A stretch of 64,000 bases of DNA from Cliona cf. orientalis (Eukaryota > Porifera > Demospongiae > Clionaida > Clionaidae). Positions within the stretch are counted from its first letter, which is position 1. Each line of letters starts with the position of its first letter. Position numbers and translations under genes: made by a program. The stretch covers positions 9,870,854-9,934,853 of the forward strand of contig OZ005689.1 of the NCBI GenBank assembly GCA_963930775.1. Reading direction: 5' to 3'. Of this stretch, positions 8,226 through 60,135 are shown one piece after another. The notes under the pieces are model-generated. The model had not been told where the DNA came from. It saw only the letters and a list, made by a program, of their open reading frames with translations, and searched no databases.

Positions 8226-8392
8226 TTACAAATTTTTTTTACTTTTCCTGTTTCTTTTTCTGAGAAATAATGCCACAACAGTGAAGACCAGAGCCACTGC
8301 CAAAGCCACAACCATGATGGCAATTATTGCCAGTCCAGTACTCAATTCAGTACTGATAGAAACACCTCCAGTATCATTATTCACATCATTAC
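8226..8392 (-). CDS. Last exon: transmembrane helix and basic tail
   Basis: Linker NDVNNDTGGVSISTEL, then a strongly hydrophobic stretch (GLAIIAIMVVALAVALVF and TVVALFL), then the tail RKRNRKSKKNL and TAA. The basic residues after the helix predict that this end is cytoplasmic. The tail is too short for a signalling domain. Entry is phase 1 from the exon ending at 8754. Confidence 0.85.
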
Positions 8393-11300
8393 CTACATCA
8401 GTAAAAATTGTATGAAAACAAAATATAATGTACGTCATCATTATCTTTTAATCAGTGTAGAATTATGAAATCTATCCTGCATAAGTCAGGCCTTGCAGAA
8501 AAATTTCATTCCACTCCAGCTTAAACTTATTAAAGACTTTGCAGTAATGCTATTAACTATAATAATTATAGATAGCTACAAAATTTTCTTGCATGCATGG
8601 AAACCAGGAAATTTTTTACAAAGATAGAATTCATCCTCGATGCTATTTCCTTTTTATTATTAAGGAGATGTAACATTAAATCATGTATAGGATTAGTATG
8701 ACTATGTAAAATTAGATACGCTCAATTGTATTTGGCATTGAAATTCGCCATACCTGCATCAATATCATTGTCTATAATTTCCACTGTGCTCAGACCTCTA
8801 GATATCCTTAATCCAGGAAAGGAATCAAGTGGCTGTAGAATAAGTGATATTGTCTCCGTACTTTCAACGTCCTTGTCATCAATGATGTCAATCAGGATAC
8901 AAGAGAGAGACTGCCCAGTTACAAATGAGAATATACTCGGAAGACCAGTGTAGTCTTGATCTACAATCGCTAAGATAAGAAACAATAATTATTATTATCA
9001 ATCGATGAAGTTGGGTCTCTTGTGCAATCTTAAATTAAATGTAATTAAGCAGTCGCTGCTGATATAATATTATAAAACGTTATTGTGAGCTCATATATTT
9101 TTCAGTCCAGGTTCTTGTAATACTAGCATTAATTTCACAGCTCTTAGATGTTAGTATGTAGGTCACTACTTCACAGTACATAATGTAGGCTTGTAAGTCT
9201 CATAATATATGACTGATTATCCATTAATTAGCTGCTGAGGGCAAACTGAAAACAGCTAATTTACACAGTTTAGTTAGAGCTAGTGCCTGTTACCTGAGCT
9301 TTTTGCAATGTTTGCCATCACCGATAGAGATATCACACCCAACTTAACCGGAATCTGACCACTCGTCAGTTTAGCACACACTCGAACGGAGCCATCTCCC
9401 TCATGGAATGTAAAGAGTAGCTGAGAAAATCCAATAGTGAACCCTACAGTGTCAGCGTCAATATGATAATTTCTGTTATTCAAACCACATTTTTTTTAAC
9501 TTTAAACCTTCTTCATTGTCAATGATCTCAATTATATTCCTATCCCTGGTCAGGATGACCCCTTCAGGAAAATCAGTGTAGAGAGCAATAGAGAAAGTCT
9601 CTGTATTTTCCAGTGTGTCGTCATCAATGATGGTAATATTAGCACAGACGGATGTGCTTAAAAGATGTCCAGCGGAGAATGAAATAACCACAGGAAGGCC
9701 CCTGTAGTCACTGCCATTAGTTGCTAGAAATGTGGTATAAAGTATAGAGTGAGATCAATGCATTATAATACAGATAGCATTGGAGTATAAAAAGGTTTAG
9801 GTGTGTCTACTATTGAATGGTAAGACCAGGAAGAATTTATACATGACCCCTCGGAGAATGCATGACATTGTGCCGTAGGATTAAGATACTTATTCTGTCA
9901 ATCTGTCTATCTATCTGTATGAGTATCTGTTGATACAAGATTTGCTGCTGCCTACTTTGTATGTACACCAAAAGGAAGGTGTTATAATGCTTCGTATAAT
10001 GGTGTTGTCAAGGTTTTTGTCAAGTGGCTTTTGCATAAAATGCTTCCTTCAAGAGTTCTGATTTCGTTTTCTAGTCACTGCCACCATAAAACTTACCTAC
10101 TACAGTTTAAATAATAGTCCGGCAAACATTATCTGCCGCAACACGTAGAGATAAAGGGAAGCTGACTTAACATTGGTAATAGTATCGCAGTGTAAAACTC
10201 AATATAACAGCACCAGCCTGAGGGTTAATGTTGCTGTGCGCTAACGAACCTTCAATACTGCAGCTGTGCTAGCCTATATCATCGTTTCGTTGTTGCCTGC
10301 TTGTGTATATACCTAATGCCATGCAATACACCGAGGGTTTTGTGCTCTAGAAAGCTAAAATGGCACCTATGGTATTCGGACTACTATAAGAGTGAATAAT
10401 TGTACCTGTATTGCTCTCTAGATCTAATACATCAACTAAGAGAAATATTTCTCTATCCAGGTCACCGATTAGCAATTCAGCACACACCAGAACAATGCCA
10501 TCACCCTCAGAGGCTGTATATGATGACTGAGAGAATGCCACTGTCACTCCTGCAAATTTTTATTACAAGCACTTAAGACAGAATAATTCTTCAGTTAGAG
10601 CTGTTTTTAAATATTATATGGGATCCTAAAACAAGGATATATAGATGCACACTATTATTTATACCGCAGATTACATCTAAAAACAAAAAAAAACAAACAA
10701 AAATTAATTGTGAGAATTAAATTACAATTCAAACCAAGCTAAGGTATCACTGTGGCATAATTATAATGGACGAGAATCAATAAACCTTACTGCACCGTAA
10801 TAGACTTACGGTCGTTAGAATTATCATCAATATCAACATTCACTGACGTCATTGTTTCATTTATTTTTACAGTTGTCTCAGAAGGAACATGTCCAAGTTT
10901 AACACTGAAGCTATGCTCTCCCTCCAGAATAGAGTCCTCCAGAATTGTCACGTTAGCACATTGGACGTCTCCAGTAGATTGTCCGGATGTGAAGGTTAGC
11001 ACGGATGGATCAGGACCAATGAAATCGACACCCTCTGTACACATAAGAGTTAAGACATATATTTTTACAGTGGTAGCTATATCCCATGATAGGGGTAGGG
11101 GATGGAGGGGTGGAGGTTGCTTAAGTAATTATCCCTTTATGACCTAGCAGGTCAGGCGCTTGCGAGACCAATTATATATATGCACTATGTAATTGACACC
11201 AGCTTAAAAGAATCATTATCTTACTCGATGAAGCCTGAACTAGCCTGCTGGTAACTTTCTTCGTTGATTCTTGCCATCTTCTTACATGCAGTACACAAGG

Positions 11301-14300
11301 ATATGCCCATAAAATTAATGATGTCATTTGACACAATAATTGGAAATTTTCATGCCGTACAAAGTACTGTATTACTTTGCCTTATCCCTATCAAAACTAC
11401 TGCTACACTTGTGATGAATTAGAGCTCTGTAGAACATACACACCATGTGCTGAATCTGCATCCTGCAATGTATCGATGAGGGCCATGTATCATAATAGTA
11501 TGTGGGCTTGTTGACAACCTTTATGTATATTTGTACTCAGCTACAGATTGTGCAATGAGCAGAAATCACTAGGGGGTGCAGTTGATATGCATGGCCAATA
11601 AAAAATTTGACAGAATTGTTGTGCTTATGAGTTGCTCAGATATCTGGGCCTCGAGATCTGGCTGACGTAACAGACCGACAGACAGCATGATTGCTTTTAC
11701 CCTTTGCTGCATATGCACACGAGGGTATTTAGTACTAATATGCCAATAAAATTAATATCACTAGCTAGATAAAAAGGCTATGCTATAGCTTCAAAATCGC
11801 AAACTAGTTCATCAGTGAGCTGCTTACCTGAACCAAGTTCATATGTCATTCCTAGCAGAGTTACAAATCAGGAAAAATTTGTATGCTGATAAATGGCGGC
11901 TTACGCTACCAAGGGCTTACTTACTGAGCTGCATAGTATTATGCGGCGAAAGGGCATGCAATGGTCATAGACAGTGAAATCCTATAATATGTTAGTGAAA
12001 AGCACAAATTTTCAACAAACAAGCACATTAATTTTATGTGTTTTTTGGGCTACTACGGTCACTTTAAGCCTTCTTTTGGTAACCCTAAAGGTCTGGAAGT
12101 CATCACTGATCATCAGGAAAAGTGATAATGAGCCTGTACTCAAGTCTATCAGTTAAGTAAACAGTTAGCTGACTGAATTTATGATGATCAGCTTGCCATC
12201 ACTAACAAATTAGATAGGCTTTATGTCGGATTAAATTGGGATGATAAGACATTAAAAGGCTGCATTCTACTATAAAATATGAACTAGAAGTTTACCTGAT
12301 CACTTTTGTCTTCCTCATTAGGTAGTAAAGTAAACGGGAGCTGATAGTTTGTCTCGATTTTTTCTGAAATGATTACTGATGCTTGGCATACAGAATTGAG
12401 AACAACCTGGAAGGACCCTGATAGCCTCTATTCTTTGTGAGATATCGAAAACAACCTGCTGATACATTGTCGATACAACTTTTATGGCTAGTCCAGAAAT
12501 CTATTTCCAGAATTTGCTTTCATTGTATGTTGTATGCCCTCTCGCTGATTAATAAGACTATCATTATTACTACTTAATATCCTTCCAACCTTGAAGTGTA
12601 TTGTATTATTATTGTCTGACTTACGTATTGCAGTATTGTTTTCAGCTCCCAAGCCAACGAGAACATTACGCTCTAATGAGCCAGATGTTATCACAGCACA
12701 GATAAAGAAGGTATCACATTCTCTAGGGTTGGTGGTTAGTGGCTGAAGGCCAACAGTGACCGCTGTAGAGGGTGAATGAGGGAGTGATAAAAAAAGAAAG
12801 AGAGAGGGAAGAAAGAAAGATTTTAGTGGCCAGTTGCTACTACGTAACTGACATCATGCAGAATATATGTTGCTACAAAAACTGTCCACGTGTAAATGCT
12901 CTAAGCCGCTTACGTAAGCTGGCTCAAGGCCCTATGTGTAAACATGATTAAAGTGCATTCCAAAGCGGTTTAGTCTAAGCTAGCTTGTATGTGTAACTGG
13001 GGCCATAATGACTCACAATCTGTAGGATCTTCATGGATGGTGACAGGAACAGAAGTTGCCCCGATGATTTGCAGTATGCTATTGGAAGAGACAACTATAT
13101 CAAACGTTTCAGTTTCCTCAACTATATCATCATTCAGGATGGAGATATTGACACAGCGAGGTGGGCTTCCAACAGTGTCACCTGGTAGGAACACTAGTGA
13201 TTTGTTCAGAGATGAGAAATCATGCTCAGCTGAGTGAAGAAAGACAGTACATATTGGATAAAAATATATTGTTCTATTAGTCTTTTGCAGGCTCTGTAGC
13301 CCCCTTAGTGAAAAGGTCACTCCACATGCATGCAGAGCTGGGTTTCTGCACATGAAGAAGATGCCTCCACATGCAGAGTCAATTTGGCACTCTGTATGCA
13401 GTAGCTAATGGATATTTTGCAGAAAAGTTTACTTTTCGGCTTCCATACACTACTACATAAAATTTATGGCACATACTACTTACCTACTGCAGTTAGACTA
13501 ATAGTCCAAATATTAACTGCTGCTGCACTTGCACTACTTTCAATTGTTCCTAGCACAATCTGCAGGCAAACTTCAACATCTAAATCAGTTCCCTCTGTAC
13601 CGCTGTACGTTTTCAGTACGATTGAAACATGAACAGCTGTAAATAATTATTATGAAGTAATTTATACCTTAATAACAATACCATTACCAGTACGTAATCA
13701 ACATACTCTAGCTATCTCAACCTACACTGAAGCATGTTGCCCTTATAGCTACAAAGTGTTGCGCAATTTTTAACACAATTCATAATTGCAAATTACATTA
13801 CTATGAATAAGGTAAGCTCATCTTTAATCGTCAAAACTTACCAAAGTCTTATATTACATTCACTCCTTACCAAATGGGTTTGGTATGTCCCCAATATTGA
13901 TGATGACAGTGTTACCATCAGCTGGTATAACCACAGCCGAATCATTGTTGTGGAGCTCCACTATCAGATTCTCTGTTGCTTCAGGGTCATTGTCATACAA
14001 CAAATTGATGGCAACACACTGCAGATCACCGGGACTACTGCCGGGCGGGAAGGTCAGTATTGCAGGTGAGGAGCCATTAAAGTCCTGTCCATCTGAAGGT
14101 AATAATTAGGGTAGTAGATCAATTTGCAGAAATAACTCTTCTAAGATCCTGCTGATGTAGTTTCCAGTCTCCCACTAGCCTCATCCCCAGGCTCTTTCGA
14201 GGAGGATGGGGAAAAGAATGGGCTTGGTAGAAATATTATTGATTGCGCATACGTTGTCAATTACCCAAATTTGGGTGATCATATTTGTCTTGGATACCTT

Positions 14301-17300
14301 TTGAGTATTCTCGTGTTTCAATACGTAAACCATCGTATATCACGTACGCTAACTGAGAGGTGTACTTGAGCGATCATTGTAATTACGTGAGTACCACTAG
14401 GCTTGTTGGCACAATGGCATAGAATACGAATAGATTCCAATAAAAATAGGTGAATGCACTGATCATAATACGATGCCCTTTTTCCTCCCCCTCCTCCTCA
14501 AAAGTCCCACACTAAAATTCAATGATTGGTACAACACTCAAAACAGTAATTATCAAGTTATTGTATAGGTTAGGAAATCTGCCACATCCCCAATAAATAC
14601 AAACTGTTCTCTACATGTAGAGTATCCTAATCAATTGTATCACACACGTACATGTGGCTGTTCCACTCAGGAGGAGGATAGAAAATGAGATTGGTATCCC
14701 CAAGCCTCCTCCATTGTCGACTAGCTCAGCACACACGTTTACTGTCTCTCCCTCTCCAAAAGTATTGTTAGTTGAATTTGCTAGCTGGATCACTGCCCCT
14801 GAAAGAAACCATAATCATGGTAAAAAACATCCCACATGCAACGGAAAGCACCAATATTACACTATTGGAGAAGTTATACTCAAACGAAGAGAATTGTAAC
14901 TATTGTAGTATCATAAATTCATTTTAGCATAATCTATAAAAACGAGCATAATATTGACCACTGAAGAAGCGTGTAACTTGCATGCCATCAAAATAATATT
15001 ATATATTCACACACGGAACTGAGTGTGTGTGGCTATCTGTGTATGTATAGTATGGCAATAGGCATTTCCAATAGACGCATATCATGCTTACTAAATAATA
15101 TGATAAGTATTTCTCTTGAATTAATTTTTATTTCAATAATATTACCTGGGCGTACACTGTTTATAGTTGCCAACTCCTTTGCAGCCTTCAATAGCTACCT
15201 CACATGCTCCTGTTATAAATTAATGAAGGGCTCAGAACCAGCCTGAGAATTGCCTAACCCACAAATGTTGAATTAGCTCCCCTAATCTTGAAAACATGTT
15301 TAAATTGCATATCATGAGCAACAGAAAATTCACATATATTATTGAGTGATTTGGTAGAGTACAAAGTTTGGTTTTTAGTCTATTTTGAGCTTTTTAGATA
15401 ACTTCCCACGTTCAATTTGGGGTTAGGCCACTCTGTTTCTCAATCCTTCAAATAAGATCCACATGACTTACTGTCGTTTGGATCCTGCAGTATGATAATG
15501 GTTGCAACACTTGATTCTGGTGTGAATGTGACAAAGCTAGCATCAGCAGATGAGGTAGTCAGAGAAATATTGAATGTTTCATCATCTTCAACCCTTGTAT
15601 CATCGATGGCAAACACTGTGGTGCATCGTTGAGCACCAATCATTAGTCCTCTTGAGAAACTCAGTGACATTGGGATAGGACCAATGTAATCAACTGAATC
15701 TGCAAGTTCATAACTTGAGTCTGCACTTGAAGTTTCCATTACAATGCCATAGCTATAGCTACTTGTTATATGATGCTCATATAAGCTTCTCTCTCTACAT
15801 AGAATAATAATTATGGGTTGATTTACAAGGGAAAACAAATAAATTTGTGCATATATGTGACAACTTTTCTGGATAAAAGATTTGCCAAGCCCAGCTATCT
15901 TTGCATTGCAGAAAAACTTCATGGAAAAAGAATTTCACTAATGTGGTAAAGGTTGCCATAATATACGTATGCTTTACACATGGACCAAATTAACGTGATA
16001 AAAACTTTACCGGCAAGCTGGCGAAAACTTATACTTATAATTATTAAATATGGTACTTTCTGCGGTGACATCAACGATGTTGAAGGTAATCTCGACCCCT
16101 CTCTCCAAGGTGCCATTGTTGAACACAACACAAACGCCAACATCTCTTAACCGTGGTTGTTCACTGACGCTGTAGTTGGTCTGCTGAAAACCAAACTCCA
16201 CAGCTGCAAGCAAAGTACAAAAAGTGATTCGTGACATAACAATCAAAGCTCACAAAGTTTATTCCCATTGACAGGCATATACCCACAATTAATTATAACA
16301 CTCAACGTTTTACTTTGTGCACCATCCCCTAAACCGCAATTTTGTGACATCAGTATTAAAATTTAATACTGATAACAAATCGAGGCATAGAGCCTGATTT
16401 GACACTGCACATGTCCAATAGTTTGAGCTTACCATCTGCTGGATCAGGATTAATTGTGACTGTAGCTTGTGATAGAATGTTTCCAATCAAGACTGGTTCA
16501 GGAGAGGTCAGTGTGACAAAGAAGATCTCACTGTCTTCCACCAAACTGTCATCAAGTATCACCACATCATAGCATTGCTCATATCCCAAGATTGATCCCT
16601 CAACAAACGTTAGAGGCACAAGCTGAAATGCAATGTAGTCCTCAGTATCTGTTGAAAAAGCATTGTGATAATTTACATTGTTGTGCACGAAACTGAGTTG
16701 AACAATCCATGCATGTACATGGTGAAAGAAGGGGACATTACAATCAGTGAAAACACACTAAATGAATGCACTGGACTCCTGTGTCTAACAAAAGATGTTG
16801 TTGAGAAAGAACTCAACGAGATTCGACAAATGGACCTTTCAACCCTATTTTTTAGGGGGAGGGTGCAAGGGGGAATTTTGCTCCCCCCTAAGATATGCTC
16901 CCATTAATCAATAATACAATAAATAATAGTAATATTCTAACAAATTCTTCTGCTCCAAATGTCCAAATTTTCGTCTATGGAGATTCTATAGCAATTATAA
17001 CTTAACATATTCTCACTATCACCCAGTGCTAACTTTGTGCAGCATCAGATGTATTCCATGCATGCTGGTGATCTCGTGCTACAGGAAGTTAGGTCTGGGT
17101 GATAGTGAGACTAGACTTACTATGATAACTATTCTTTCATGTGAGTATATACATCGAATGTACATTTTCTCTAAGACAATTCTTATCAGTGAACACAGGA
17201 AGGCTTTGAATGGACAGATGGACGGGCAAATAAAAAAAAAAGTTGCTGAACAATTATAGTGAACTCTACAACTACACTTTGCGGCAAGAGTTGAATAATA

Positions 17301-32300: not shown

Positions 32301-33689
32301 TACTCATAATAATATTATGACATTGTTTGTAAAGTATATATACAGCTCAACTAGCTAGATGATAAAATTAATCTAGCTACATCTTTGTCATTAGCTAGCT
32401 ATATATATCACAGGATTTTGTAAGGCTCTATCGGCCACCTTCATTTTTACTGAGCAAAGGCTCTGTGCTGTACTAATACACAATACTGCTCATACCAGCT
32501 AGCTATCGCTAACTCTGCATAGCCGAGTTATTTTATGTGCACTATTTGGAAAGCAACACTCATGCTTGCTTTTGCTGTGTAAGAGGCAAACAACATTATA
32601 ACTACACCTTAATTGTTTCCAATACTGTACTAATTAGTGTTCAAAAAAAGGGTGATTCATCTTGTTTTGTTACCATCATTGTAATTCTCTCTGATATCAA
32701 TAGTAGTGGATGTTGCTGTTAGAGTTGTAACAGGTGGGTCATCAGCCGACAGGGTGACAGTGAAAAATTCCTCATTGTTCTCCACTACATTGTCATTGAT
32801 GATGTCCAGACTTGCACACACAACATCACCAGTCATCTGTCCATTGGTGAACACCAACTGAGTGGTGAGGGCTGAATAGTCACCAGGGGCTATATGAATA
32901 TTAGCATGAACATTATACGAGTGTACTGGTGACGTAATCAGGCCTTTATTTAGAAAGTTTAAGGGGTGGGGAGGGGGGGGGGGAGCAACGCCAATTTCAT
33001 AAGCATATGATCTCTAGGTGTTTTGGGACAGGCTCCCTGGGGAGTTTTTGCATCTTAGACTCCCTGAGAATCACGGTTCTTAGAACTAATTTGATACTAA
33101 AGCAAGACCAAATAAATTTGTTGTTGTACTGGTCCAGTTTTTGCTTTATTACTAATGCGCGCATGTGCAGTATTGACCTCTTTCCAAATGTTGTAAAACT
33201 TTGACCTTACCACATACAGCTGAAAAACAAAAGTTGACTGGACACTAACGGCAAGTATTTGCTTATATATTAGCGACTTCTGTCACCTAATTTTTTGCTC
33301 ACCAAATGTCGTTGTGGAGTAAAATTCCTAGCCTTCTTATATAGCTTACAATCAAAGTGTCCGCAGTAACTTGCAAATGCATTGGGAACCAAATAAAAAA
33401 GGCTAAGGAATGACAGTAATCATAGGCATAGGAAGATATTGAAGGTTGGGTGGGCCCAATATCCAGTTGCGCGCGAATCGTGTGCAAAATGTCTACAACC
33501 ACGCCCTCTTTGTGGCAAACCACGCCCATTTTTGCACAATCGAGACTGCTATCAAAAGTTTCTCGATGAAAAAATGAACTATAAATCGAATGGAATAGAT
33601 TTGTAAGCAATTGAGGCATATTCACTCATAGTCACTTCAGACTAGCTGGATTGGATTTCTTTCTGAGCTGCAGATGAAATGTCAGCTCA

Positions 33690-33720
<31 letters not shown>

Positions 33721-48065: not shown

Positions 48066-48096
<31 letters not shown>

Positions 48097-54000: not shown

Positions 54001-57000
54001 ATTGTACACTACCACTCGTCAATGGAATGCAAAATGAAATTTTGTTGAATATTTCTCCCACATTAATCTCGTCCCAAGACCCCACCCCAAAAGTAGGAAA
54101 GGGTCTAGTTAATAATTAAAATTTGAGCAAATCATGTAAGATGGCATTGGAATTATACTGATAGCAATAAAAAAAATGATAACAAGGATAAAAATAATTG
54201 AATAGTAGGAGTGTCAGGGCCAATTAAAAAGTACATACACAAGATTTGTAGGGATAATCATATCCACTACTGTAATAATATGCTTACTTTTTGAGGGGCG
54301 CAAAAACAATCAGCGATATGGAAGTCAAGAGCATTTTAATGAAAGTTAGTATTAATAGTTTTATGATAGCTGAGAAAAGCAAGCATAGGGGTATATAGTG
54401 GATATTATGATTATTCTTACAAATCTTGTTTATGTATTTTTTATTCCATCCTTCAATTTTGTACACATGTAATTTGTATTACTATGTCCTCAGTGCCAAT
54501 TGATTTTTTTGCGGTTATTAGGTAATTATGATGAAACTTATGATATAATCTATGAGGTAATCTATGAGAAAATTATGAGAAAATTCAGGGCCTTGATGGA
54601 GCCCATCTGGGACTCGAAATCCAGTGAAATATATATAAGAGTATCTTGCAGCAAATACCTTATAAGCAGCATGTTGCCTTCTCTGACGAGCAGTGATGGC
54701 CAAACTTCACGCGTTCTCTAGGCTGACGTAATCCTGTGGATATATATTGATAGCCCTGCGCTATATATAGCTCGCACCATGAGCAGCATGCCGCCAGACC
54801 GATCTAGCTGTACTACAATAAAAATAATTAAATTTTAACAATGAACCCAGTCTGCAAATGTACATGTTCGTGAAATCTTGTAAACAACTAAAGATTGAGA
54901 AGGTCAGTAGGAACTTCAACGTCATAATTTAAATGGATAATAATTGCTATCGTGGGTAAAGTGTGAATGAGGTAAATGAAGCGGCTGATTGTGGTATGCA
55001 TGCAGTCCACACATTTATGCCAGCTGTGTGTGCATAACCCATGCATGCATAATATAATATTATATCCATTTCCGTTTCATTCTGTACTATGGAATCAATT
55101 AGTTTTCTTGTGTGGTCAAATACAAGTAGGAAATCCTAATGAATCAGATGTGTTTGTACCAGCTGATCAGCCCATAATATATATGGGGGAGTGTAGGAAT
55201 GCCATGCATACTTAAGCAGCATGCCGCCAGACCGATCTAGCTGTACTACACTATTGAGTTCTTCTCAGCGCAACCTTTCACTATCAAGGTCAAGAGCCAC
55301 TCTCAGACTCCCGATGATCCGAGTCTAGTCTAGTCTGCAATTAAGGTGCCGGCATCGTACAGTATGGTGAATCCACTTTATTGACAACCTTTACCACATA
55401 CACCATTTCCTCAATCCAGCTACTGCATGATGACATGGTCAAGTTTTCATTATAATTTTATGCTGAAGTTGTGTAGCAACTGAGGGATCGAAACATGACA
55501 CAATGACCAAATCAAAGTTCTAAAATTAATTATACCACCCATTCTGTAGGTAGGTAGGTAGGATGACTATTATTCTATGAGCCTATTTACTGTTTATAAG
55601 CAATATGTGATAATCCTAGCTATAACCGCAGTCTCACAAATAAGGGCCCGCTATTGACTGTCCGTCCATGCCCTGGTTTAGCTTCAATATTCCGCTAGAT
55701 AATCAACATTGATGTGCTAGCTATTTGGGCTCAAGAATCGATGCATAGCTACATACCTAATTCTATTTATAGCCCACTAGTAAGTGTGTTGCTTAAGGTG
55801 ACATATTGAGGGTTGTGGCTAGCTCACAATGTGCAAGACACATTTATTAGACTTGGGGGTTAATTTTGCATAATAGTCTTCATTGTCGGATAGACACTAT
55901 AGATAATGTAACGAGGAGAGTACATACATAATTTATTTTCAGAACTTACCATCAGTGTCAATTATTGTAAATATTGCTCGCTGACAGATGCTTGAAATCT
56001 CAACCAGTTCATCATCACTAGTTAGAGCCATATGGAAATATTCATTATTCTCCACAGCCACATCATCAATGACAGATACTGTCACACACTGACGATCACC
56101 TTGGGCACTGCCATTTGGAAATGTTAGGACTGTGGGATCAAGCTCATAATCCACTCCTCCTAATAATGAGATTGATGAATCCGTCATAACAAAGGATAGG
56201 TAATGCGGTATTTCCGCCACTATACTTGAAACGGGCGCCCCACCCTATTTGTGAATTAATGGCTGGTTTGTAAAAATTTTAATAGCTGCAACAATGATTT
56301 GCAGTAGCTATGTAAATAATAGCACCCAAGTGTTGTGGGTATTTGGCTTCTCAAAACAACAGTAGTTTGCAGAAATAGCGCTTCACTTATGCATACACAG
56401 AGTGACTATCCAAGTGCACATTGCAATTCTTAAGAGTAAGCCTGCAATGCAAAATATTCCCTCGTCATGCCCAATATATATACATCCCATGCTAATAATT
56501 ACCCCGTGCACATGCATAAGGGGGTAAAATATCAGTTGTATCGTTGTTGTCGTCATAAGCACAAAAAATCGCCATATCTCAAGTGACTCGTTAGCACAAT
56601 GAATCAATATGCTTCGAATCGAGGAACACAATCCACGAGCATCATAAATAGTACCTTTTTGTTAGCCATCGTAGCCACGCCTATAGACAAAATGTATACG
56701 TAATAGCAGTTCATATCTTCCCAGTCTAGATCTGGTGCAGAGAGAGAATCAGTGTTTTTTGGCTGACATCACAACCAAGCCATTCCTACTAGCTAATTCT
56801 ACAAAATTATAATCATGCACACGAAAATAGTCTATACAGATTGCACAATATGCGTATAGGGTATGTGCTCTACAGAGCTCTAGTTATTATTATGACATTA
56901 ACACCCAAGTTTGAATTCAGTCCTAGAGGAAACACTTAAATACTGGCAATGATACCTCGTGTGTGTGGAAGCTTGCAAGAGACGATTTGCTGCAGTTTAG

Positions 57001-60000
57001 TTGACGCACGGCAATGAACTATTCGATCATAGCTAAAAGTTGATTCTCGTGTAGACTTCAATTCCATTAATCACATTCCTTGAGGAACTCAGAATGCACA
57101 AATGCACAAGCCCAGTGATATCAATGCCTGACTACAATCACTTCCATGTCCAAATTAGTGATAACATGCACCATAACATATACAGCTAGCTGCACCGTCC
57201 CACCAGTTTTCTCATCAAACAATACGTGTTGCATGGCCCAGGCTGTAACCTGAATCCCCACACCCTTCTCAACCACTCTGGCACCTATGGATAGTGCACC
57301 AGCAGCCTCAGCACCAGGTTCAAGCAGTAAGGTAGGGATAGTTTAGCTATAATGGACGTAGCAATCTAGAGCCTTGGTAGCTCACAAGGTGGTAGATGGA
57401 ATCTGGAGAGATGTGTGACCACACTAGCTGCCCTTGTAAGGTCACCCATAATACAGGTCAAGGGGTGGGTTTCATTATGGCCATAAAAAGGGTAGCTAGG
57501 CCAAGATTTGTTAAGGGGAACTGTATAAATGATGGTGAGCCTGTTTGAGCAGTGCTGGAGTCAGCAGAATTGTTATATGATAGTGTCCAGCCCATCAACA
57601 CCATCAAGCACAATTGTAATCGGCCAATCCAGAGTGGACTCATGATAGCTCAATGCTTTTCTCCTACCCCCACTTGATCATGTATGCTTGGATTAGCTTG
57701 TATCAGCGGAAACAATCTCCCAGCTTTTCTTATACCCCAACAGCAGCACTATCTTGGACACGTCCATCACAAAAACTGTTTTTATTCTTAGCTTGTCCAT
57801 AATTCAATAGTTTGTGCATCCCTTGTCCTAATTCTTATTAATAGTTTGCTCCAGCGACCCCTCAAGCTAATCTTAACCCTTATATCAATAAGCCTAAAAC
57901 GCCGGAAATATTTTATTACTAGCTTAGATTGATATTGATTTACTATTAGCTGTAGATGATGAAGTATCAGGTGATACTGTTACATTGTAGTCCGAAGTTG
58001 TCAATTCCGTTCCACCAACGAACAGGAGCTGTACACACACCTGCCGAGTTCCACCCTCTTCATGTAAACTGTAGTCACAGGAACAACCAGCATCAAACCA
58101 CACTAGAATATCTGCATAGAATAAGAAAAAAATGTATGTAAACACAAATAGAAACATAGGTAATACCTAGTAGCTCATATTCAGTGTTTGGTAACATATA
58201 GGGGGAAATATATTTCAAGAAAATTTCATGTTTCAAATTCACAATCAGGCATTTTTGTGAAAGGATAATTTGGTTTGTGGTTTGTGCAATACGTATATTT
58301 ATATAGGTTTTTGGCATGACTGATATGCCCACTAACTCCATGAGCGTGAACACTATTGCAATAATAATACTTTAGAATATAGCTATTGAGAATCCCGCTA
58401 TCTGATTGGTTAAAACAGTGCTACTAACCTACTTAGATCCCTGCAGGTTTTCTAAGTGCTCCACGATCCAGGCACTAACTCGAGCTATGTTCACGTGATC
58501 ACTATGACAACGACCAAGAAGGAAACCACACTCACAATAATTAGTCCATAATATGCCATAGCGCGTGCGTACGCGTGCACGGAGCGCGAGCTGCCACGTT
58601 TGGCCACACCCATGAGGCACCGTTGAACGTTAGTGTTGGTGACTGAGAGCTGCTCGGGCGCTAGGGTTTGTTGCTAACTCACAGTTCTTGTTTTGACTCA
58701 CCTTTTGAACTTTCTTGCTGTCATGGTTACAGTTGCTATAATATTCTAATAGTAAATAAGTTAGATACCTCGTCCAACGGGATCTACACTCTTTAGAGAT
58801 CCTCAGGCCCTTAGTAGCACCCTCGCTACGTATACGCTCGGGATGCTACAGCTTCGGGCCTTCGGGTCTCTAAATCGCGTAGATCGGTATCTAACTATTA
58901 GCTATATAGCAGCTATAAATGGAAAACATCGTATAGAAAGCTCATGATCATGCATAAATTCAGTAGATATAACCAGTGGACTTCCCCCACTTACACCATT
59001 GCAGCAGTGGTGCATGTATCAATGCATGAGTTGTAGCTATTGGGTATGGTTTTACACCATGAGCAGTGCCTTTCGTTCACATGAATTTGTAGATTGATAA
59101 TTATCCTGCGTGCGCATGCACACTTTGAACTTGCAAACGAGGTATGTAGCAGCTAGCTTGGTAACAGATAGACACACAGAACGACTACGTACGCATGCAG
59201 TGAGAGCTAGTTAAATATCATGAGTAGTGGTCGCACCAAGTCCTGCCAAGTATAACGGATTCTTCTGCAGCTGCAGCTCTACATGAAACACAGACTCGTG
59301 CACATTGAGTGTTTTGTATCTAGCTACTCCAGTCCAGTTTATTCATTGAAATAATATGTAGCTACATAACTACATTAGCTGGATCCTGATCCTTAATTCT
59401 TCATTATAATCAAACTACCATCTTCATAGATCTGCCATATCAACAAGAAACCATGAACAAACTAGCTAGAGCTCTGTAGAGCACATACCCCGCGCGCACA
59501 TTGCGCAATCTATAGATTTACTTTCGGTGCATGGCTATGATTGTGAACTTGAGAGAAATAATGGAAATGCTGCTTAGTTGTTCCGGTGACACTTAAAACA
59601 GCGCTCTCTACACCCAGACTATATAGGAAGACACGAACTTGTACCTATATAATTTTGTGTAATATAATATTATTATAGCTATCTTACATAGTGATTGGTT
59701 CCATGGGGCTTCAGATTTCAGTCACTATAGACGTCACGAGCATTATTTAGAACATCGACGATATCTTTACCGCTCGTGGACCGTATCCCTCGATTTGACG
59801 CACACTGAAGCCAAATTTTCGCCGAATTCGATTGATTCGTTGTGCTTACAAGTCGCTTAGATGCCTGTATCTCGAGATATGGCGATTTTTGTGCTACTGA
59901 CAATTAACACTGTGACGACAACAACGACGACGACACAACCGATTACTTTACCCCTTGCGCATGCGCGCGGGGTAATGAGTCACTGAGACAGCTCTGCCAT

Positions 60001-60135
60001 GCAGGTCATGATCATTTTTATGCCCATTGAATTTGGACAATAATATTATTATTATATTGATTAAAACATACCATGTGCTTCCACTTCTTTGCAAAGGTAA
60101 TATAGGGAGAACAGAACAATAGCTGATACCTGCAT
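8226..60135 (-). CDS. Giant Calx-beta array membrane protein, 60 exons
   Basis: Predicted single-pass type I membrane protein of about 3,604 residues: signal peptide, 29 Calx-beta domains, a hydrophobic helix and a 13-residue basic tail. Calx-beta domains bind calcium at domain edges and occur in Na/Ca exchangers, integrin beta4, the ADGRV1 receptor and sponge aggregation-factor cores. ATG at 60133-60135, TAA at 8226-8228. All internal exons are multiples of three and join in phase 1, so reading stays open over 10,815 coding nt. Acidic calcium-type motifs such as IIDDDTLENTETF and closing DND or EDP motifs recur. Almost every first half carries one Cys (VCAE type) and almost every second half one Cys (QC type). 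Domain order is N1-N4, A1-G1, A2-D2, F2-G2, A3-D3, B4-G4, H, I. Joining all exons in one transcript is inference from phase and order; two neighbouring genes cannot be excluded. Confidence 0.8.
8754..9443 (-). CDS. Calx-beta domain I (exons 9294-9443, 8754-8969)
   Basis: Membrane-proximal domain. First half FTIGFSQLLFTFHEGDG, RVCAKLTSGQIPV. Second half DQDYTGLPSIFSFVTGQS, SCILIDIIDDKDVESTET, ending IIDNDIDAG. Domains H and I resemble each other and may be an independent duplication. Confidence 0.87.
9508..10549 (-). CDS. Calx-beta domain H (exons 10406-10549, 9508-9723)
   Basis: Unique domain after the blocks. First half VTVAFSQSSYTASEGDG, VCAELLIGDLDREI. Second half NGSDYRGLPVVISFSAGH, VCANITIIDDDTLENTETF, ending IIDNEEG. 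It is closest to the textbook Calx-beta pattern (EGDG, then DDD..E..E.F). Confidence 0.87.
10810..12762 (-). CDS. Calx-beta domain G4 (exons 12625-12762, 10810-11034)
   Basis: First half VTVGLQPLTTNPRECDTFFI, CAVITSGSLERNVLV; the extra Cys (PREC) replaces the Arg of G1 and G2. Second half GVDFIGPDPSVLTFTSGQS, QCANVTILEDSILEGEHSF. The mid intron is 1.6 kb and includes a repeat copy at about 11422-11731. Confidence 0.87.
13017..13636 (-). CDS. Calx-beta domain F4 (exons 13484-13636, 13017-13229)
   Basis: First half VHVSIVLKTYSGTEGTD, EVCLQIVLGTIESSA. Second half EHDFSSLNKSLVFLPGDTVG, RCVNISILNDDIVEETETF. The mid intron is only 254 bp and lacks the insertion carried by F1 and F2. Confidence 0.88.
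13871..14798 (-). CDS. Calx-beta domain E4 (exons 14652-14798, 13871-14092)
   Basis: First half AVIQLANSTNNTFGEGE, VCAELVDNGGGL. Second half GQDFNGSSPAILTFPPGSS, QCVAINLLYDNDPEATEN. Like E1 it lacks a full DDD cluster. The mid intron holds a worn element with Mutator-like ends (about 14160-14515). Confidence 0.86.
14160..14515. mobile_element. Degenerate Mutator-like MITE
   Basis: In the E4 intron. The left end CCTCATCCCCAGGCTCTTTC, with GAGGAGGATGGGGAAAAG, faces CTTTTTCCTCC and CTCCTCCTCAAAAG at the right, as imperfect complements. The sequence resembles the TIR at 2644 but is worn; no target duplication was found. Confidence 0.4.
15472..16203 (-). CDS. Calx-beta domain D4 (exons 16057-16203, 15472-15699)
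   Basis: First half VEFGFQQTNYSVSEQPRLRD, VCVVFNNGTLERGV. Second half DSVDYIGPIPMSLSFSRG, RCTTVFAIDDTRVEDDETF, ending QDPNDS. Confidence 0.88.
16433..17458 (-). CDS. Calx-beta domain C4 (exons 17315-17458, 16433-16648)
   Basis: First half ARSILLTSSNYDAFEANG, RICAVVMAEAIERTI. Second half DTEDYIAFQLVPLTFVEG, QCYDVVILDDSLVEDSEIF, ending NPDPADG. The intron includes an inverted pair, CTCACTATCACCCAG near 17011 and CTGGGTGATAGTGAG near 17096. Confidence 0.88.
17555..20017 (-). CDS. Calx-beta domain B4 (exons 19877-20017, 17555-17770)
   Basis: First half ITVGLMQTSYNTPEIGG, SVCVEILNGNLEKNV. Second half APGDFSALNTQLVFTNGQ, LDIINDNIVENNEEFF, ending RENDNDG. Its 2.1 kb mid intron contains the repeat at 18797-19443 and a poly-C run at 19575-19595. 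Confidence 0.88.
18797..19443. repeat. 650-bp interspersed repeat, copy 1
   Basis: Begins CTTCTCAGTGCAGTTAAGGC and ends near CAGTCCTTAAGTGCACTGAG. It is almost identical to 28975-29636. It contains a perfect 17-bp inverted pair, ATCGGACGGATTGTCGA and its complement, about 80 bp apart. No protein is recognised. It lies in the B4 mid intron. Confidence 0.85.
20348..21066 (-). CDS. Calx-beta domain D3 (exons 20920-21066, 20348-20575)
   Basis: First half VEFGFQRTNYSVSEQPRLRD, then ICVTINNGTLERGI. Second half DSVDYVGPTPMSLSFSRG, QCTTVFAIDDTKIEDDETF. Last domain of block 3; it is followed directly by B4, only 330 bp away, so E, F, G and the next A are missing here. Confidence 0.88.
21281..22378 (-). 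CDS. Calx-beta domain C3 (exons 22235-22378, 21281-21496)
   Basis: First half ARSILLTSSNYDTFEANG, SVCAVIMAEAIERAI. Second half YMAFQLVTLTFVEGSISG, QCYDVVIIDDNVVEDNEIF, ending NPDPADS. A TA-flanked MITE (21572-22058) occupies most of the mid intron and is missing from C1, C2 and C4. Confidence 0.88.
21572..22058. mobile_element. TA-flanked MITE in the C3 intron
   Basis: About 487 bp with TIRs of about 40 bp: it starts CCGTATGGCGGATAATTTTC and ends GAAAATTACCCGCTATACGG, with TA on both sides. A TA target and CCGTA ends suggest a Tc1/mariner- or pogo-type non-autonomous element. It carries repeated CACGAAAATT motifs and a perfect internal 14-bp palindrome at 21747-21778. Confidence 0.8.
22718..23379 (-). 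CDS. Calx-beta domain B3 (exons 23239-23379, 22718-22933)
   Basis: First half VTVGLMQTTYNAPEIGG, SVCAEIFDGNLERNV. Second half APGDFSTLNTQLVFTNGQ, LDIINDNVVENNEEFL, ending RENDNDG. The mid intron holds a short repeat at about 22998-23180 that recurs at 61308-61440. Confidence 0.88.
23589..24204 (-). CDS. Calx-beta domain A3 (exons 24058-24204, 23589-23807)
   Basis: Opens block 3. First half VIGFPMGASLTATERINS, VCPQILQGVLERPV. Second half TDYNSISVEEVVFTSGQTV, QCTPITIMDDNVLEDTESF. Confidence 0.88.
24356..24582. mobile_element. Small MITE in the G2-A3 intron
   Basis: TIRs of about 23 bp: TATTTCTTCTAAAAATTCG at the left and CGAATTTTTAGAAGAAATA at the right. The interior also repeats GCCGAAT motifs. 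It is non-coding and sits in the 1.9 kb intron 24205-26126. Confidence 0.75.
26127..26790 (-). CDS. Calx-beta domain G2 (exons 26653-26790, 26127-26351)
   Basis: First half VIVGLQPLTTNPRERDTFLV, CAEITSGSLERNVLVGL. Second half GVDFIGPDPSVLTFTSGQS, QCANVTILDNSFLEGERSF, ending DIDDDHND. Confidence 0.88.
27646..28642 (-). CDS. Calx-beta domain F2 (exons 28487-28642, 27646-27858)
   Basis: First half IHISIMRRTYSGTEGTG, EVCLQIVLGTIDNSA. Second half GLDFSPLNTSLVFLPGDTVG, RCVNISILNDDIVEATEIF. It follows D2 directly, with the phase kept, so block 2 lacks E. The mid intron carries a repeat (about 28020-28418) at the same place as in F1. Confidence 0.87.
28020..28418. repeat. GAGCTCTGTAGAG-type repeat in the F2 intron
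   Basis: Starts near AGAGCTCTGTAGAGG, passes through GGATACCTAGATCCCGAGAT, and ends near CCTTTGCATGCAGATGCAG. The F1 intron has the same element with matching flanks. Looser relatives occur at 11422-11731, 52880-53325, 56500-56890 and, inverted, 59462-59980. Confidence 0.7.
28975..29636. repeat. 650-bp interspersed repeat, copy 2
   Basis: Second copy of 18797-19443, same orientation, with small indels. It lies in the intron between D2 and F2, exactly where domain E is missing. Confidence 0.85.
30540..31421 (-). CDS. Calx-beta domain D2 (exons 31275-31421, 30540-30758)
   Basis: First half VEFGFQRINYSVSEHLRLND, VCVVLNNGTLEREI. Second half DSVDYIGPTPMSLTFSRG, QCITVFAIDDTTVEDDETF. It is 9 nt shorter than D1, D3 and D4, reading LTTDASF where the others have LTTSSADASF or similar. 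No type E domain follows. Confidence 0.87.
31686..32138 (-). CDS. Calx-beta domain C2 (exons 31995-32138, 31686-31892)
   Basis: First half TRSISLTSSNYDAFEGNG, SICAVIMAEAIETTV. Second half YVAFQLVRLMFEVGSVSG, QCYDVVIIDDSVVEDSEIF. The second half is 9 nt shorter than in C1, C3 and C4: EPALILSQAT lacks three residues present in the other copies. Confidence 0.86.
32674..35054 (-). CDS. Calx-beta domain B2 (exons 34914-35054, 32674-32889)
   Basis: First half ITVGLMQTLYNTPEIGG, SVCVEMFNGNLERNV. Second half APGDYSALTTQLVFTNGQ, LDIINDNVVENNEEFF; the closing motif is RENYNDG, with Tyr where B1, B3 and B4 have Asp. The 2 kb mid intron contains a 25-nt poly-G run and repeats. Confidence 0.87.
34130..34420. 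repeat. Interspersed repeat in the B2 intron
   Basis: Shares GGTAATCTATGAGGTAAT, ATGAGAAAA and GGAGCC, plus the later GAGCAAATACCT segment, with 54520-54800. A partial copy lies near 48120-48220. Function unknown. Confidence 0.6.
35267..35818 (-). CDS. Calx-beta domain A2 (exons 35672-35818, 35267-35485)
   Basis: Opens block 2. First half VIGFPMGASLMVTERINS, VCPQILQGVLERSV. Second half IDYNSISVEEIVFTSGQTV, QCTPITILDDNVLEDTES, ending NEDPLDG. Confidence 0.88.
36262..36330 (-). repeat. tRNA-like segment, probable tRNA-derived SINE head
   Basis: On the - strand an A box (TAGCTCAGTGG, 36312-36322) and a B box (GGTTTCATTCC, 36268-36278) have tRNA-like spacing. The acceptor and anticodon stems do not pair and the T stem keeps only GGG/CCC, so it is not a working tRNA. 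It lies in the G1-A2 intron, on the sense strand of the host gene. Confidence 0.6.
37020..37656 (-). CDS. Calx-beta domain G1 (exons 37519-37656, 37020-37244)
   Basis: First half ITVGLQPLTTNPRERDTFLV, CAEITSGSLERNILV. Second half GIDFIGPNPSVLTFTSGQS, QCADMTILDNSFLEGERNF, ending DIDDDNDD. Last domain of block 1. Intron sequence beside the donor (CAAGCTAAGGTATCAGTGTGG-like, about 36950) is shared with G2 and G4. Confidence 0.88.
38610..40618 (-). CDS. Calx-beta domain F1 (exons 40460-40618, 38610-38822)
   Basis: First half VIHISIVLRTYSGTEGITG, EVCLQIVLGTIDYSA; three nt longer in total than F2. Second half GRDFSSLNTSLVFLPGDTVG, RCVNISILDDDIVEATETF, ending NEDPTD. Its 1.6 kb mid intron contains a repeat at about 40061-40388 that is shared with F2. 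Confidence 0.88.
40061..40388. repeat. GAGCTCTGTAGAG-type repeat in the F1 intron
   Basis: Counterpart of 28020-28418 at the same intron position, with shared flank TCTGGAACA before it and CACATACTACTCCATT after it. It contains GGATGCCTAGATCTGA and CCCTTTGCATGCACGTGCAG. Confidence 0.7.
41413..42153 (-). CDS. Calx-beta domain E1 (exons 42004-42153, 41413-41634)
   Basis: First half AVIQLANSTANNTFGEGE, VCAELVDNGGGL. Second half GQDFDGPSSVILNFPPGSS, QCVTINLMHDNIAEGTEN. The calcium-type cluster is weaker (HDN, not DDD). The intron 41635-42003 carries a small foldback (CCCAGGTAAGTG and its complement, about 41690-41765). Type E survives only in blocks 1 and 4. Confidence 0.86.
42532..43294 (-). 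CDS. Calx-beta domain D1 (exons 43148-43294, 42532-42759)
   Basis: First half VEFGFQVTNYSISEQLRLRN, VCVVLNNGTLEREI. Second half DSVDYVGPTPMSLSFSRG, RCTTVFAIDDTRIEDDETF, ending QDPNDS. Confidence 0.88.
43493..44000 (-). CDS. Calx-beta domain C1 (exons 43857-44000, 43493-43708)
   Basis: First half AGSILLSSLSYDAFEANG, SVCAVIVAEAIERPI. Second half DTEDYIAFQLVSLTFVEG, QCYDVVIIDDNVVEDNEIF, ending NPDPADG. Confidence 0.88.
44307..45236 (-). CDS. Calx-beta domain B1 (exons 45096-45236, 44307-44522)
   Basis: First half ITVGLLQTSYNTPEIDG, SVCVEMFTGNLERNV. Second half APGDYSILNTQLVFTNGQ, VDIIDDNVVENNEELF, closing RENDNDG. The conserved Cys of the second half sits in VVCAS rather than QC. Confidence 0.88.
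45481..46018 (-). CDS. Calx-beta domain A1 (exons 45872-46018, 45481-45702)
   Basis: Opens block 1. First half VIGFPMGASLTATERIN, VCPQILQGVLERPV. Second half DFNFINAEEIVFTSGQ, QCTPITILDDNNVLEDIES. The acidic loop has one Asn more than in A2 and A3 (LDDNNVLED against LDDNVLED). Confidence 0.88.
46680..46822. repeat. Cluster of adjacent GC-rich hairpins
   Basis: Perfect inverted pairs in a row: GCAACGTTC/GAACGTTGC (46680-46708), CCTCG/CGAGG (about 46727-46750), GCCTGC/GCAGGC (46769-46783), GGCGC/GCGCC (46798-46810), GATCG/CGATC (46811-46822). The region is far richer in GC than its surroundings. It lies in the N4-A1 intron. Confidence 0.8.
47768..49501 (-). CDS. Calx-beta domain N4 (exons 49355-49501, 47768-47992)
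   Basis: First half VDIGFLAPMFFTMENES, SVCAQIDRGSLEREV. Second half SDYAMVNSSVLTFTSGQSF, QCIDLDILNDDILEYDENF, ending QEDNAD. This is the last unique domain before the repeating blocks. Its 1.36 kb mid-domain intron contains a 30-nt poly-C tract and two perfect inverted repeats. Confidence 0.85.
48811..48998. repeat. Two adjoining perfect inverted repeats
   Basis: The outer pair TTTGTTGGTAGTTG/CAACTACCAACAAA occupies 48811-48824 and 48912-48925. Immediately after, a perfect 26-bp arm at 48926-48951 pairs with 48973-48998 across a 21-nt loop (core ATCTGCCAGTAATTGGGGTG). Both lie in the N4 mid intron. Confidence 0.92.
50129..50829 (-). CDS. Calx-beta domain N3 (exons 50683-50829, 50129-50344)
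   Basis: First half TISMRNATLTQMESDAS then EVCVTLSN, without the usual G-x-LER segment. Second half SDYVGRSNVSIAF, QCTSISINEDSIVEYNEIF, ending IIEDDD. The calcium-type acidic cluster is present. Confidence 0.85.
51802..52357 (-). CDS. Calx-beta domain N2 (exons 52217-52357, 51802-52017)
   Basis: First half ITVSLVESSVNVAENAG then QLCVNIT. Second half RDFSSQ, then RCFRVRIYEDTRVENDEYF, ending in VILDNDG. It joins N1 in phase directly across the intron 52358-55949, skipping the orphan half at 53953-54063. Confidence 0.85.
53953..54063 (-). pseudogene. Orphan Calx-beta half-exon beside a transposon end
   Basis: Reads INVGEIFNKISFCIPLTSGS, then VQFLEHGSSAVSITASSDG, and ends at a phase-1 GT donor (GATG then gtaacc), just like a first-half exon with its Cys. 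The upstream part of the exon is replaced by a Mutator-like TIR (TAATCTCGTCCC starting at 54064). No acceptor in the right phase and no matching second half were found, so it is probably the remains of a lost domain between N1 and N2. Confidence 0.6.
54064..54110. mobile_element. Mutator-like TIR fragment
   Basis: TAATCTCGTCCCAAGACCCC followed by ACCCC, AAAAG and GGAAAGGGTCTAG matches the end of the element at 2644-2990. The opposite end was not found, so the element is degraded or larger than expected. Confidence 0.6.
54520..54800. repeat. Interspersed repeat in the N1-N2 intron
   Basis: Second copy of the 34130-34420 repeat, with GGTAATCTATGAGAAAATTA and AAATTCAGGGCCTTGATGGA. The following part (GCGCTATATATAGC) also matches. 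Confidence 0.6.
55950..58111 (-). CDS. Calx-beta domain N1 (exons 57944-58111, 55950-56159)
   Basis: First half has an unusual cysteine-rich start (WFDAGCSCDYSLHEEGG) and the Cys of QVCVQLLF. Second half reads GVDYELDPTVLTF, then QCVTVSVIDDVAVENNEYF, and closes with IIDTDG. The intron between the halves is 1.8 kb and holds a repeat at about 56500-56890. N1 is the most membrane-distal domain. Confidence 0.8.
56500..56890. repeat. Interspersed repeat of the same family, N1 intron
   Basis: Begins with TTACCCCGTGCACATGCATA, contains AAAATCGCCATATCTCAAG, and ends GTGCTCTACAGAGCTCTAG. It is inverted relative to 28020-28418. Confidence 0.6.
58760..58895. repeat. Foldback segment in intron 1
   Basis: Nested complementary pieces GTTAGATACC/GGTATCTAAC, GATCTAC/GTAGATC and TTTAGAGA/TCTCTAAA enclose an inner GTAGCA/TGCTAC pair, giving a 136-bp fold with small bulges. 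Confidence 0.7.
59462..59980. repeat. Interspersed repeat of the same family, intron 1
   Basis: Begins AGCTAGAGCTCTGTAGAGCA, contains TCTCGAGATATGGCGATTTT, and ends near GCGCATGCGCGCGGGGTAAT. It lies just downstream of the signal-peptide exon. Confidence 0.65.
60072..60135 (-). CDS. Exon 1: start codon and signal peptide
   Basis: Reads MQVSAIVLFSLYYLCKEVEA then H, ending with one base of the next codon before a GT donor (gtatgt). The hydrophobic core AIVLFSLYYL followed by VEA fits a secretory signal with cleavage after VEA. A purine lies at -3 (aagg before ATG). Phase 1 matches the next exon at 58111, giving a Asp codon across the junction. No other candidate with the right phase was noticed upstream. 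Confidence 0.75.

What the first reader, a model, noticed from the sequence alone, without database searches (positions are those of the whole stretch)
8226..60135. A 29-domain Calx-beta membrane protein encoded by a 60-exon gene
Phase, order and open frames support one transcript from a signal peptide at 60135 to a membrane anchor at 8226, about 3,604 residues made almost entirely of Calx-beta domains with no other recognised ectodomain. Calx-beta repeats occur in sponge aggregation-factor cores; an anchored, Calx-beta-only relative would be a candidate surface partner in calcium-dependent adhesion or self-recognition. The role is inference.
Basis: partly seen in the sequence, partly recalled or inferred. 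Interest (0 to 1): 0.88.

Follow-up and report, generated by a model that had tools for sequence, protein, structure and literature searches.

The report
Giant Calx-beta repeat membrane protein gene
One animal-type gene spread over about 52,000 bases and 60 exons appears to encode a very long, acidic cell-surface protein made almost only of 29 Calx-beta (calcium-binding-type) domains, 23 of them lying in repeated copies of a seven-domain block; it looks real but belongs to a known kind of protein, and its role in cell adhesion is still a guess.

Summary
On the minus strand, 29 first-half and 29 second-half Calx-beta exons alternate without exception; Pfam finds 29 Calx-beta stretches. Spliced from the signal-peptide exon at 60135 to the stop at 8226, the model has 60 exons and 3,604 residues, with all 59 introns phase 1 (eleven splice sites and the last exon set by hand). 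All 58 domain exons are multiples of three.

Not in the finding: domains 5-27 are four full or partial copies of a seven-domain block, BCDEFGA | BCDE-GA | BCDE | CDEFGA, between unique ends. Copies show purifying selection (pooled dN/dS 0.30). All 29 domains have the same cysteine pair. Six calcium-ligand positions are all acidic in 18 of 29 domains, but the C-terminal acidic triad is complete in only 1 of 29.

Best reading: a type I membrane protein with a calcium-stiffened rod, probably adhesive. Calcium binding, adhesion, self-recognition and sponge origin are not shown; no transcript data. A 41-repeat Calx-beta protein is known from Nematostella (PMC2805694, passages), so this is a new member of a known kind.

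The parts
60072..60135 (-). Exon 1: start codon and signal peptide, donor phase 1
   Evidence: only candidate with phase-1 donor and cleavage region in the scan, missed by the cruder scan
47768..58111 (-). Exons 2-9: domains 1-4, unique N-terminal Calx-beta domains
   Evidence: domains 1, 2, 3 match Pfam singly; domain 3 first half weak in the half-domain profile
37020..46018 (-). Exons 10-23: module copy 1, domains 5-11, types B C D E F G A
26127..35818 (-). Exons 24-35: module copy 2, domains 12-17, types B C D E G A (F absent)
   Evidence: no clear remnant of F exons in the 30539-28643 intron
20348..24204 (-). Exons 36-43: module copy 3, domains 18-21, types B C D E (F G A absent)
10810..20017 (-). 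Exons 44-55: module copy 4, domains 22-27, types C D E F G A (B absent)
8754..10549 (-). Exons 56-59: domains 28 and 29, unique membrane-proximal Calx-beta domains
   Evidence: domain 29 matches Pfam singly
8226..8392 (-). Exon 60: short linker, single transmembrane helix, short basic tail, stop (model A)
7690..7778 (-). Possible alternative last exon (model B, acidic tail), spliced from a weak donor at 8243; unproven
   Evidence: an acceptor and open frame this good is expected about 0.87 times per 460 bases by chance

Best explanation
A single animal-type gene encodes a type I membrane protein: cleaved signal peptide, 29 tandem Calx-beta domains, one membrane helix, very short cytoplasmic tail. 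The acidic domains bind calcium, as NCX CBD1 does. This stiffens the ectodomain into a long rod that holds binding surfaces away from the cell and supports calcium-dependent adhesion, homophilic or to matrix. The gene grew by unequal duplication of a seven-domain block. This is easy because every domain exon is symmetric phase 1, and the same property would allow in-frame exon skipping. Shown from sequence: gene model, domain count, module order, selection, cysteine pair, ligand positions. Inferred: calcium binding, rod shape, adhesion, splice variants.
For: Alternating half-domain exons on one strand. 29 Pfam Calx-beta stretches. All 59 introns phase 1 in the final model, 56 of 58 in the free search; all 58 domain exons symmetric. 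One good signal-peptide exon and the strongest membrane exon at the two ends. Pooled dN/dS 0.30 over 28 paralogous domain pairs, range 0.15-0.60. In 28 self-alignments, exon bases are 88.8% identical against 81.9% for aligned intron bases. Nearest solved structures are CALX and NCX calcium-binding domains (best E 2.6e-20). Of six ligand positions (NCX1 E385, D421, D446, D447, E451, E454; named in PMC3386913, passages), acidic residues number 27, 29, 21, 27, 29 and 26 of 29; all six are acidic in 18 of 29 domains. Predicted ectodomain about 380 kDa, pI 4.05.
Against: No transcript, protein or population data. Eleven splice sites were placed by hand and four donors score -3.4 or lower. Eleven of 29 domains lack at least one of the six acids. 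At the three C-terminal ligand positions (D498-D500 of NCX1; D499 and D500 also hold neighbouring domains together, PMC3386913 passages), only 1 of 29 domains has three acids and 17 of 29 have two or more. This weakens the calcium-stiffening step, and the confidence was lowered from 0.55 to 0.50 for it. No RGD motif, no Pfam domain other than Calx-beta above cut-off. The tail of model A is too short to suggest a cytoskeletal link. Calx-beta domains also serve non-adhesive roles (ion-exchanger regulation).
Confidence: 0.5

Rival explanations
1. The locus holds two or more genes or alternative transcripts, for instance separate genes per module copy, and the 60-exon chain is an artefact of similar exons lying side by side.
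For: Tandem module copies. Other signal-peptide-like reading frames exist, e.g. at 36770 just before module copy 2, with a weak phase-1 donor. Membrane-like open frames lie at 46204-46093, at the border of domains 4 and 5, and at 58642, 54369 and 23896. A 3,592-base intron separates exons 3 and 4.
Against: No other signal-peptide exon with cleavage region and a phase-1 donor scoring 2 or more in the scan. The membrane-like frame at 46204-46093 (2.46) is intron sequence read straight into exon 10 itself, the one at 23896 lies inside domain 18, and all are weaker (2.37-2.75) than the one at 8392 (3.16). The introns between module copies (1,201, 1,922 and 330 bases) are no longer than the longest inside modules (2,024 and 2,106). 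Half domains alternate perfectly across the borders.
Confidence: 0.12
2. It is an extracellular recognition molecule whose diversity comes from exon skipping and copy-number change of the module, i.e. part of a self/non-self system of the aggregation-factor type.
For: 58 of 58 domain exons symmetric; repeated module; demosponge aggregation factors carry Calx-beta domains and are linked to allorecognition in a review (PMC10815962, one passage).
Against: Domain copies show purifying, not diversifying, selection (dN/dS at most 0.60 in 28 pairs). No polymorphism data; species unknown. A membrane anchor does not fit a secreted proteoglycan core. A grafting study in Amphimedon reported no significant enrichment of aggregation-factor-mediated adhesion genes (PMC5450542, passage). 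Symmetric phase-1 exons are usual in extracellular modular genes (recalled).
Confidence: 0.15
3. A mainly structural or protective surface filament (glycocalyx-like, or a matrix tether) with no specific adhesive partner.
For: Very long, acidic, 65 N-glycosylation sequons, few lysines (19 of 3,628), no other Pfam domain above cut-off.
Against: The seven domain types are each conserved across copies, which suggests that specific surfaces are kept.
Confidence: 0.25
4. The repeated blocks are an assembly error (haplotypes joined in tandem) or the gene is decaying.
For: Repeated blocks of about 9-10 kb can arise that way; four weak donors.
Against: Copies differ at synonymous sites by dS 0.18-0.38 and have different domain content, too much for two haplotypes. 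The 60 exons join without frameshift or stop, though exons were placed so as to stay open.
Confidence: 0.04

Closest known systems
Nematostella vectensis Calx-beta tandem-repeat proteins (A7SVI9, 41 repeats in 4,953 residues; A7SI34, 17 repeats in 2,271), from a table in PMC2805694 (passages seen)
   Same: Long tandem arrays of Calx-beta domains in an early-branching animal.
   Different: Their topology, exon structure and any super-repeat were not seen here; sequences not compared.
Sponge aggregation-factor core proteins (Microciona prolifera O16857, 15 Calx-beta repeats in 2,205 residues in the PMC2805694 table, its identity as aggregation factor recalled; demosponge AF genes, PMC10815962 passage)
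   Same: Calx-beta repeats on an extracellular animal protein.
   Different: This one has a membrane anchor; AFs are described as extracellular proteoglycans (PMC8380372 passages). AF-specific domains could not be tested, and no AF sequence was available for comparison.
ADGRV1/VLGR1 (35 Calx-beta domains, PMC7642844 passage)
   Same: Dozens of Calx-beta domains on a membrane protein with a probable signal peptide.
   Different: No EAR or seven-helix region found here; Pfam finds Calx-beta only above cut-off.
FRAS1/FREM family (FREM2 mouse: 5 Calx-beta, PMC2805694 table)
   Same: Calx-beta domains in large extracellular proteins (recalled: some anchored by one membrane helix).
   Different: No CSPG repeats found here; 29 domains instead of 5.
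CALX and NCX1 calcium-binding domains CBD1/CBD2 (3rb7, 3e9t, 3us9)
   Same: Same domain by profile, best E 2.6e-20; six ligand acids align.
   Different: There the domains are cytosolic regulators of an ion exchanger, and the four chains shown lack the cysteine pair at the aligned places; here 29 are on an ectodomain, and the C-terminal acidic triad is mostly incomplete.

Membership tests
Calx-beta domain family (PF03160) | Profile match above the curated cut-off | tested here: met
   393, 364, 472 and 87.5 bits against cut-off 27 for the four pieces; 29 stretches; 13 of 13 representative domains match singly at E 0.01
Calx-beta domain family (PF03160) | Acidic calcium-ligand positions of NCX1 CBD1 | tested here: inconclusive
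   first six positions all acidic in 18 of 29 domains; C-terminal triad complete in 1 of 29, two or more acids in 17 of 29; binding itself not testable
Sponge aggregation factor | Calx-beta repeats | tested here: met
Sponge aggregation factor | Secreted proteoglycan core without membrane anchor | tested here: not met
   membrane exon at 8392, by hydropathy; the extracellular nature of AF is from PMC8380372 and PMC10815962 passages, absence of an anchor recalled
Sponge aggregation factor | Wreath and von Willebrand-type domains (recalled) | tested here: inconclusive
   no such Pfam match above cut-off; whether Pfam holds the Wreath domain was not checked; key paper not held
Sponge aggregation factor | Found in a sponge | tested here: inconclusive
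   taxon of the window not established
ADGRV1 adhesion GPCR | Seven-helix region and EAR domains | tested here: not met
   single membrane helix and stop; no such Pfam match above cut-off
FRAS1/FREM | CSPG repeats N-terminal to Calx-beta (recalled) | tested here: not met
   Pfam finds only Calx-beta above cut-off
Na/Ca exchanger (NCX/CALX) | Exchanger membrane domain | tested here: not met
   no such Pfam match

The most novel reading that the evidence does not exclude
A membrane-anchored, Calx-beta-only recognition protein whose ectodomain is reconfigured between cells or individuals by in-frame skipping of any of 58 symmetric half-domain exons and by gain or loss of a seven-domain module: a combinatorial, calcium-stiffened cell-surface identity rod.
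Probability: 0.08. Interest if true: 0.8.

Novelty: new member of a known kind. Interest (0 to 1): 0.42.

Why it matters
If it is a sponge gene, it offers a membrane-bound counterpart to the extracellular Calx-beta aggregation factors and a concrete candidate for how early animals hold cells together in a calcium-dependent way. In any lineage it is a clear case of a giant extracellular gene growing by duplication of a seven-domain block, built from half-domain exons that all share one phase.

Tried and rejected
Extra last exon with an acidic tail (7778-7690): its phase fits, but an acceptor and open frame this good is expected 0.87 times per 460 bases by chance on either strand and the donor is weak (-1.1), so it is listed as unproven and the stop at 8226 is kept.

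Decayed F domain in the gap between domains 15 and 16: by blastn, F exons gave one 15-base match on the wrong strand (E 0.6). Introns flanking F gave four short matches (15 to 33 bases), the best 33 bases at E 4.6e-9, possibly a repeat. The tblastn half of that script was fed DNA by mistake and says nothing.

Assembly error from joined haplotypes: rejected because of dS 0.18-0.38 between copies. Second gene starting at 36770: the frame looks signal-like but has only a weak phase-1 donor.

Taxon and relatives: an interspersed repeat (two exact copies of a 20-base pattern in the window) was sought in viral and prokaryote collections, nothing. Three domains (364 of 3,604 residues) were sought in viral contigs and plasmids, and a four-domain alignment in prokaryote and viral contigs, nothing. 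These collections hold few eukaryotes, and the short-pattern search missed even bacterial Calx-beta proteins, so this says little. The aggregation-factor paper (Grice et al. 2017) is not held; nothing is claimed from its text.

Full report
What was checked. The finding claims one minus-strand gene from 60135 to 8226 with 60 exons, 29 Calx-beta domains and about 3,604 residues. Profiles for the two halves of the domain were grown from the window's own open frames. They found 29 second halves and 29 first halves, all on the minus strand. Sorted by position, first and second halves alternate without exception. Weakest accepted score: 9.3 bits for the first half of domain 3; the other 57 score 33.8 bits or more. 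Twenty first-order Markov shuffles of the window gave at best 10.0 bits (first-half profile) and 10.9 (second-half profile), so that one half is at noise level by this profile. Domain 3 as a whole matches Pfam Calx-beta with 43.1 bits over residues 3-120 of 121.

Gene model. A path search over splice sites, free to choose phases, joined all 59 exons (signal exon plus 58 half-domain exons) without a stop. 56 of the 58 introns between them came out phase 1. Eleven splice sites were then set by hand: eight second-half acceptors and the donor at 16057 from homologous copies, and the donor at 9508 and acceptor at 9443 from the domain border and the phase-1 rule. The membrane exon was also joined by hand. 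The final model A has 60 exons, 59 introns (64 to 3,592 bases, median 361), all of phase 1, and 3,604 residues; all 58 domain exons are multiples of three. Four donors are weak, with scores of -3.4 or lower. Model B adds a last exon at 7778-7690 (3,628 residues), but this is no better than chance.

Ends of the gene. A crude scan for signal peptides did not list exon 1 and flagged six others on the minus strand and three on the plus strand. A second scan, with an uncharged core and a scored phase-1 donor, left two minus-strand candidates and none on the plus strand; only the one at 60135 has a proper cleavage region. The criteria of the second scan were set after seeing the first. The membrane exon at 8392 has the most hydrophobic 20-residue stretch (mean 3.16) of 8 minus-strand and 4 plus-strand candidates, some overlapping; the next best on the minus strand are 2.75 or lower. 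One of these, at 46204-46093, lies at the border of domains 4 and 5 but is intron sequence read into exon 10.

Domains. Pfam finds 9, 8 and 2 Calx-beta stretches in three pieces and 10 in the fourth, 29 in all. The pieces cover 3,627 of 3,628 residues of model B. Scanned singly at E 0.01, 13 of 13 representative domains match Calx-beta and nothing else. Five other families appear in the long pieces with E-values of 0.0046 to 0.064 (DUF4843, DUF4083, Zn_ribbon_4, CcmE, DUF7452); none reaches its cut-off.

Module structure. Aligned domains fall into seven types at 76-89% identity within a type (28 pairs), against a median of about 30% over all pairs. The order is: domains 1-4 unique; B C D E F G A (5-11); B C D E G A (12-17); B C D E (18-21); C D E F G A (22-27); 28 and 29 unique. 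In the tree six of the seven types are well-supported groups; type C has support 89/95. Long branches of domains 1-4, 28 and 29 make the deeper order unsure.

Selection and age. Over 28 within-type pairs, dN/dS runs from 0.15 to 0.60, pooled 0.30 with dS 0.28. In 28 self-alignments of 250 bases or more, aligned exon positions are 88.8% identical (7,779 positions), intron positions 81.9% (5,693), and no exon base is aligned with an intron base. Only introns similar enough to align are counted, and exon boundaries were partly set by homology, so the last point is not fully independent.

Calcium and cysteines. The nearest solved structures by profile are CALX and NCX calcium-binding domains (15 distinct sequences at E up to 0.01, best 2.6e-20). 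The ligand residues of NCX1 CBD1 are given in PMC3386913 (passages seen). At E385, D421, D446, D447, E451 and E454 the acidic counts are 27, 29, 21, 27, 29 and 26 of 29; all six are acidic in 18 of 29 domains. At the last three positions (D498-D500) only 1 of 29 domains has three acids, 17 of 29 have two or more and 29 of 29 at least one. The same paper ties D499 and D500 to the calcium-dependent domain interface, so this counts against strong stiffening in many domains. Two cysteines, one per half, are present in 29 of 29 domains and absent at the aligned places from the four PDB chains shown. That they form a disulfide between neighbouring strands is inference. Residues 22-3567 have a computed mass of about 380 kDa and pI 4.05; the whole of model B has 65 N-glycosylation sequons, 19 lysines and no RGD.

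How it likely works. In NCX, calcium at the CBD1 end restricts motion between neighbouring domains (PMC3386913, passages). By analogy, 29 domains in series would form a calcium-stiffened rod on the cell surface. Long repeat ectodomains of animals often serve adhesion (recalled), but nothing here tests it. Symmetric phase-1 half-domain exons make duplication and in-frame skipping easy. This fits the module history and predicts splice variants.

What is known. High-copy Calx-beta tandem proteins are already recorded: 41 repeats in a Nematostella protein and 15 in a Microciona protein (PMC2805694, passages with table); 35 in ADGRV1 (PMC7642844, passage). Demosponge aggregation factors with Calx-beta domains are tied to allorecognition in a review (PMC10815962, passage); a grafting study in Amphimedon saw no significant enrichment of aggregation-factor-mediated adhesion (PMC5450542, passage). 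In the sponge Geodia, aggregation factor is reported to bind a membrane-bound aggregation receptor (PMC5793068, passage), so a surface partner was already proposed there. The ten paper searches listed no title describing a Calx-beta-only anchored protein with a repeated seven-domain module. One search listed only 12 of 1,450 papers, the library lacks most subscription papers, and only passages of eleven listed papers were seen, so this is weak evidence of absence.

Taxon. No whole genome is held for the window. Scans of viral and prokaryote contigs and of plasmids with parts of the protein or with an interspersed repeat found nothing.

Verdict. Real, large and orderly gene on sequence evidence; a new member of a known kind. 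The super-repeat and the uniform cysteine pair are the parts worth reporting. The role is open.

Noticed in passing
4079-5116 (+), heme-like motif at 5208: Exons of a cytochrome P450 gene on the plus strand (Pfam p450 6.3e-18 and 1.9e-5, 2 of 10 flanking frames scanned; heme motif), tail to tail with the Calx-beta gene.
   Followed up: partly
63074-63905 (-): Two overlapping open frames upstream on the same strand, one coiled-coil-like, one with a cysteine/histidine cluster (by eye); no Pfam match at 0.01. Perhaps 3' exons of a neighbouring gene.
   Followed up: partly
29636-28975 and 19443-18797 (-): A non-coding element of about 680 bases, 89.9% identical, in two introns at different places of the module, possibly a mobile element.
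   Followed up: no
59871-59890 (-) and 56564-56583 (+): Interspersed repeat in opposite orientation in introns near the 5' end; the shared 20-base pattern occurs twice in the window and not in viral or prokaryote contigs.
   Followed up: partly
7005-7135: Array of 60-base repeats (2.2 copies) just downstream of the gene.
   Followed up: no
36770 (-): Signal-peptide-like open frame in the intron just before module copy 2, with only a weak phase-1 donor; a possible alternative start, probably chance.
   Followed up: partly
16057, 20920, 43148 and 9508 (-): Very weak donor sites (gtacca, gtacca, gtataa, gtttaa); the first three are the same site in three of the four copies of the type E domain, candidates for regulated splicing.
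   Followed up: no
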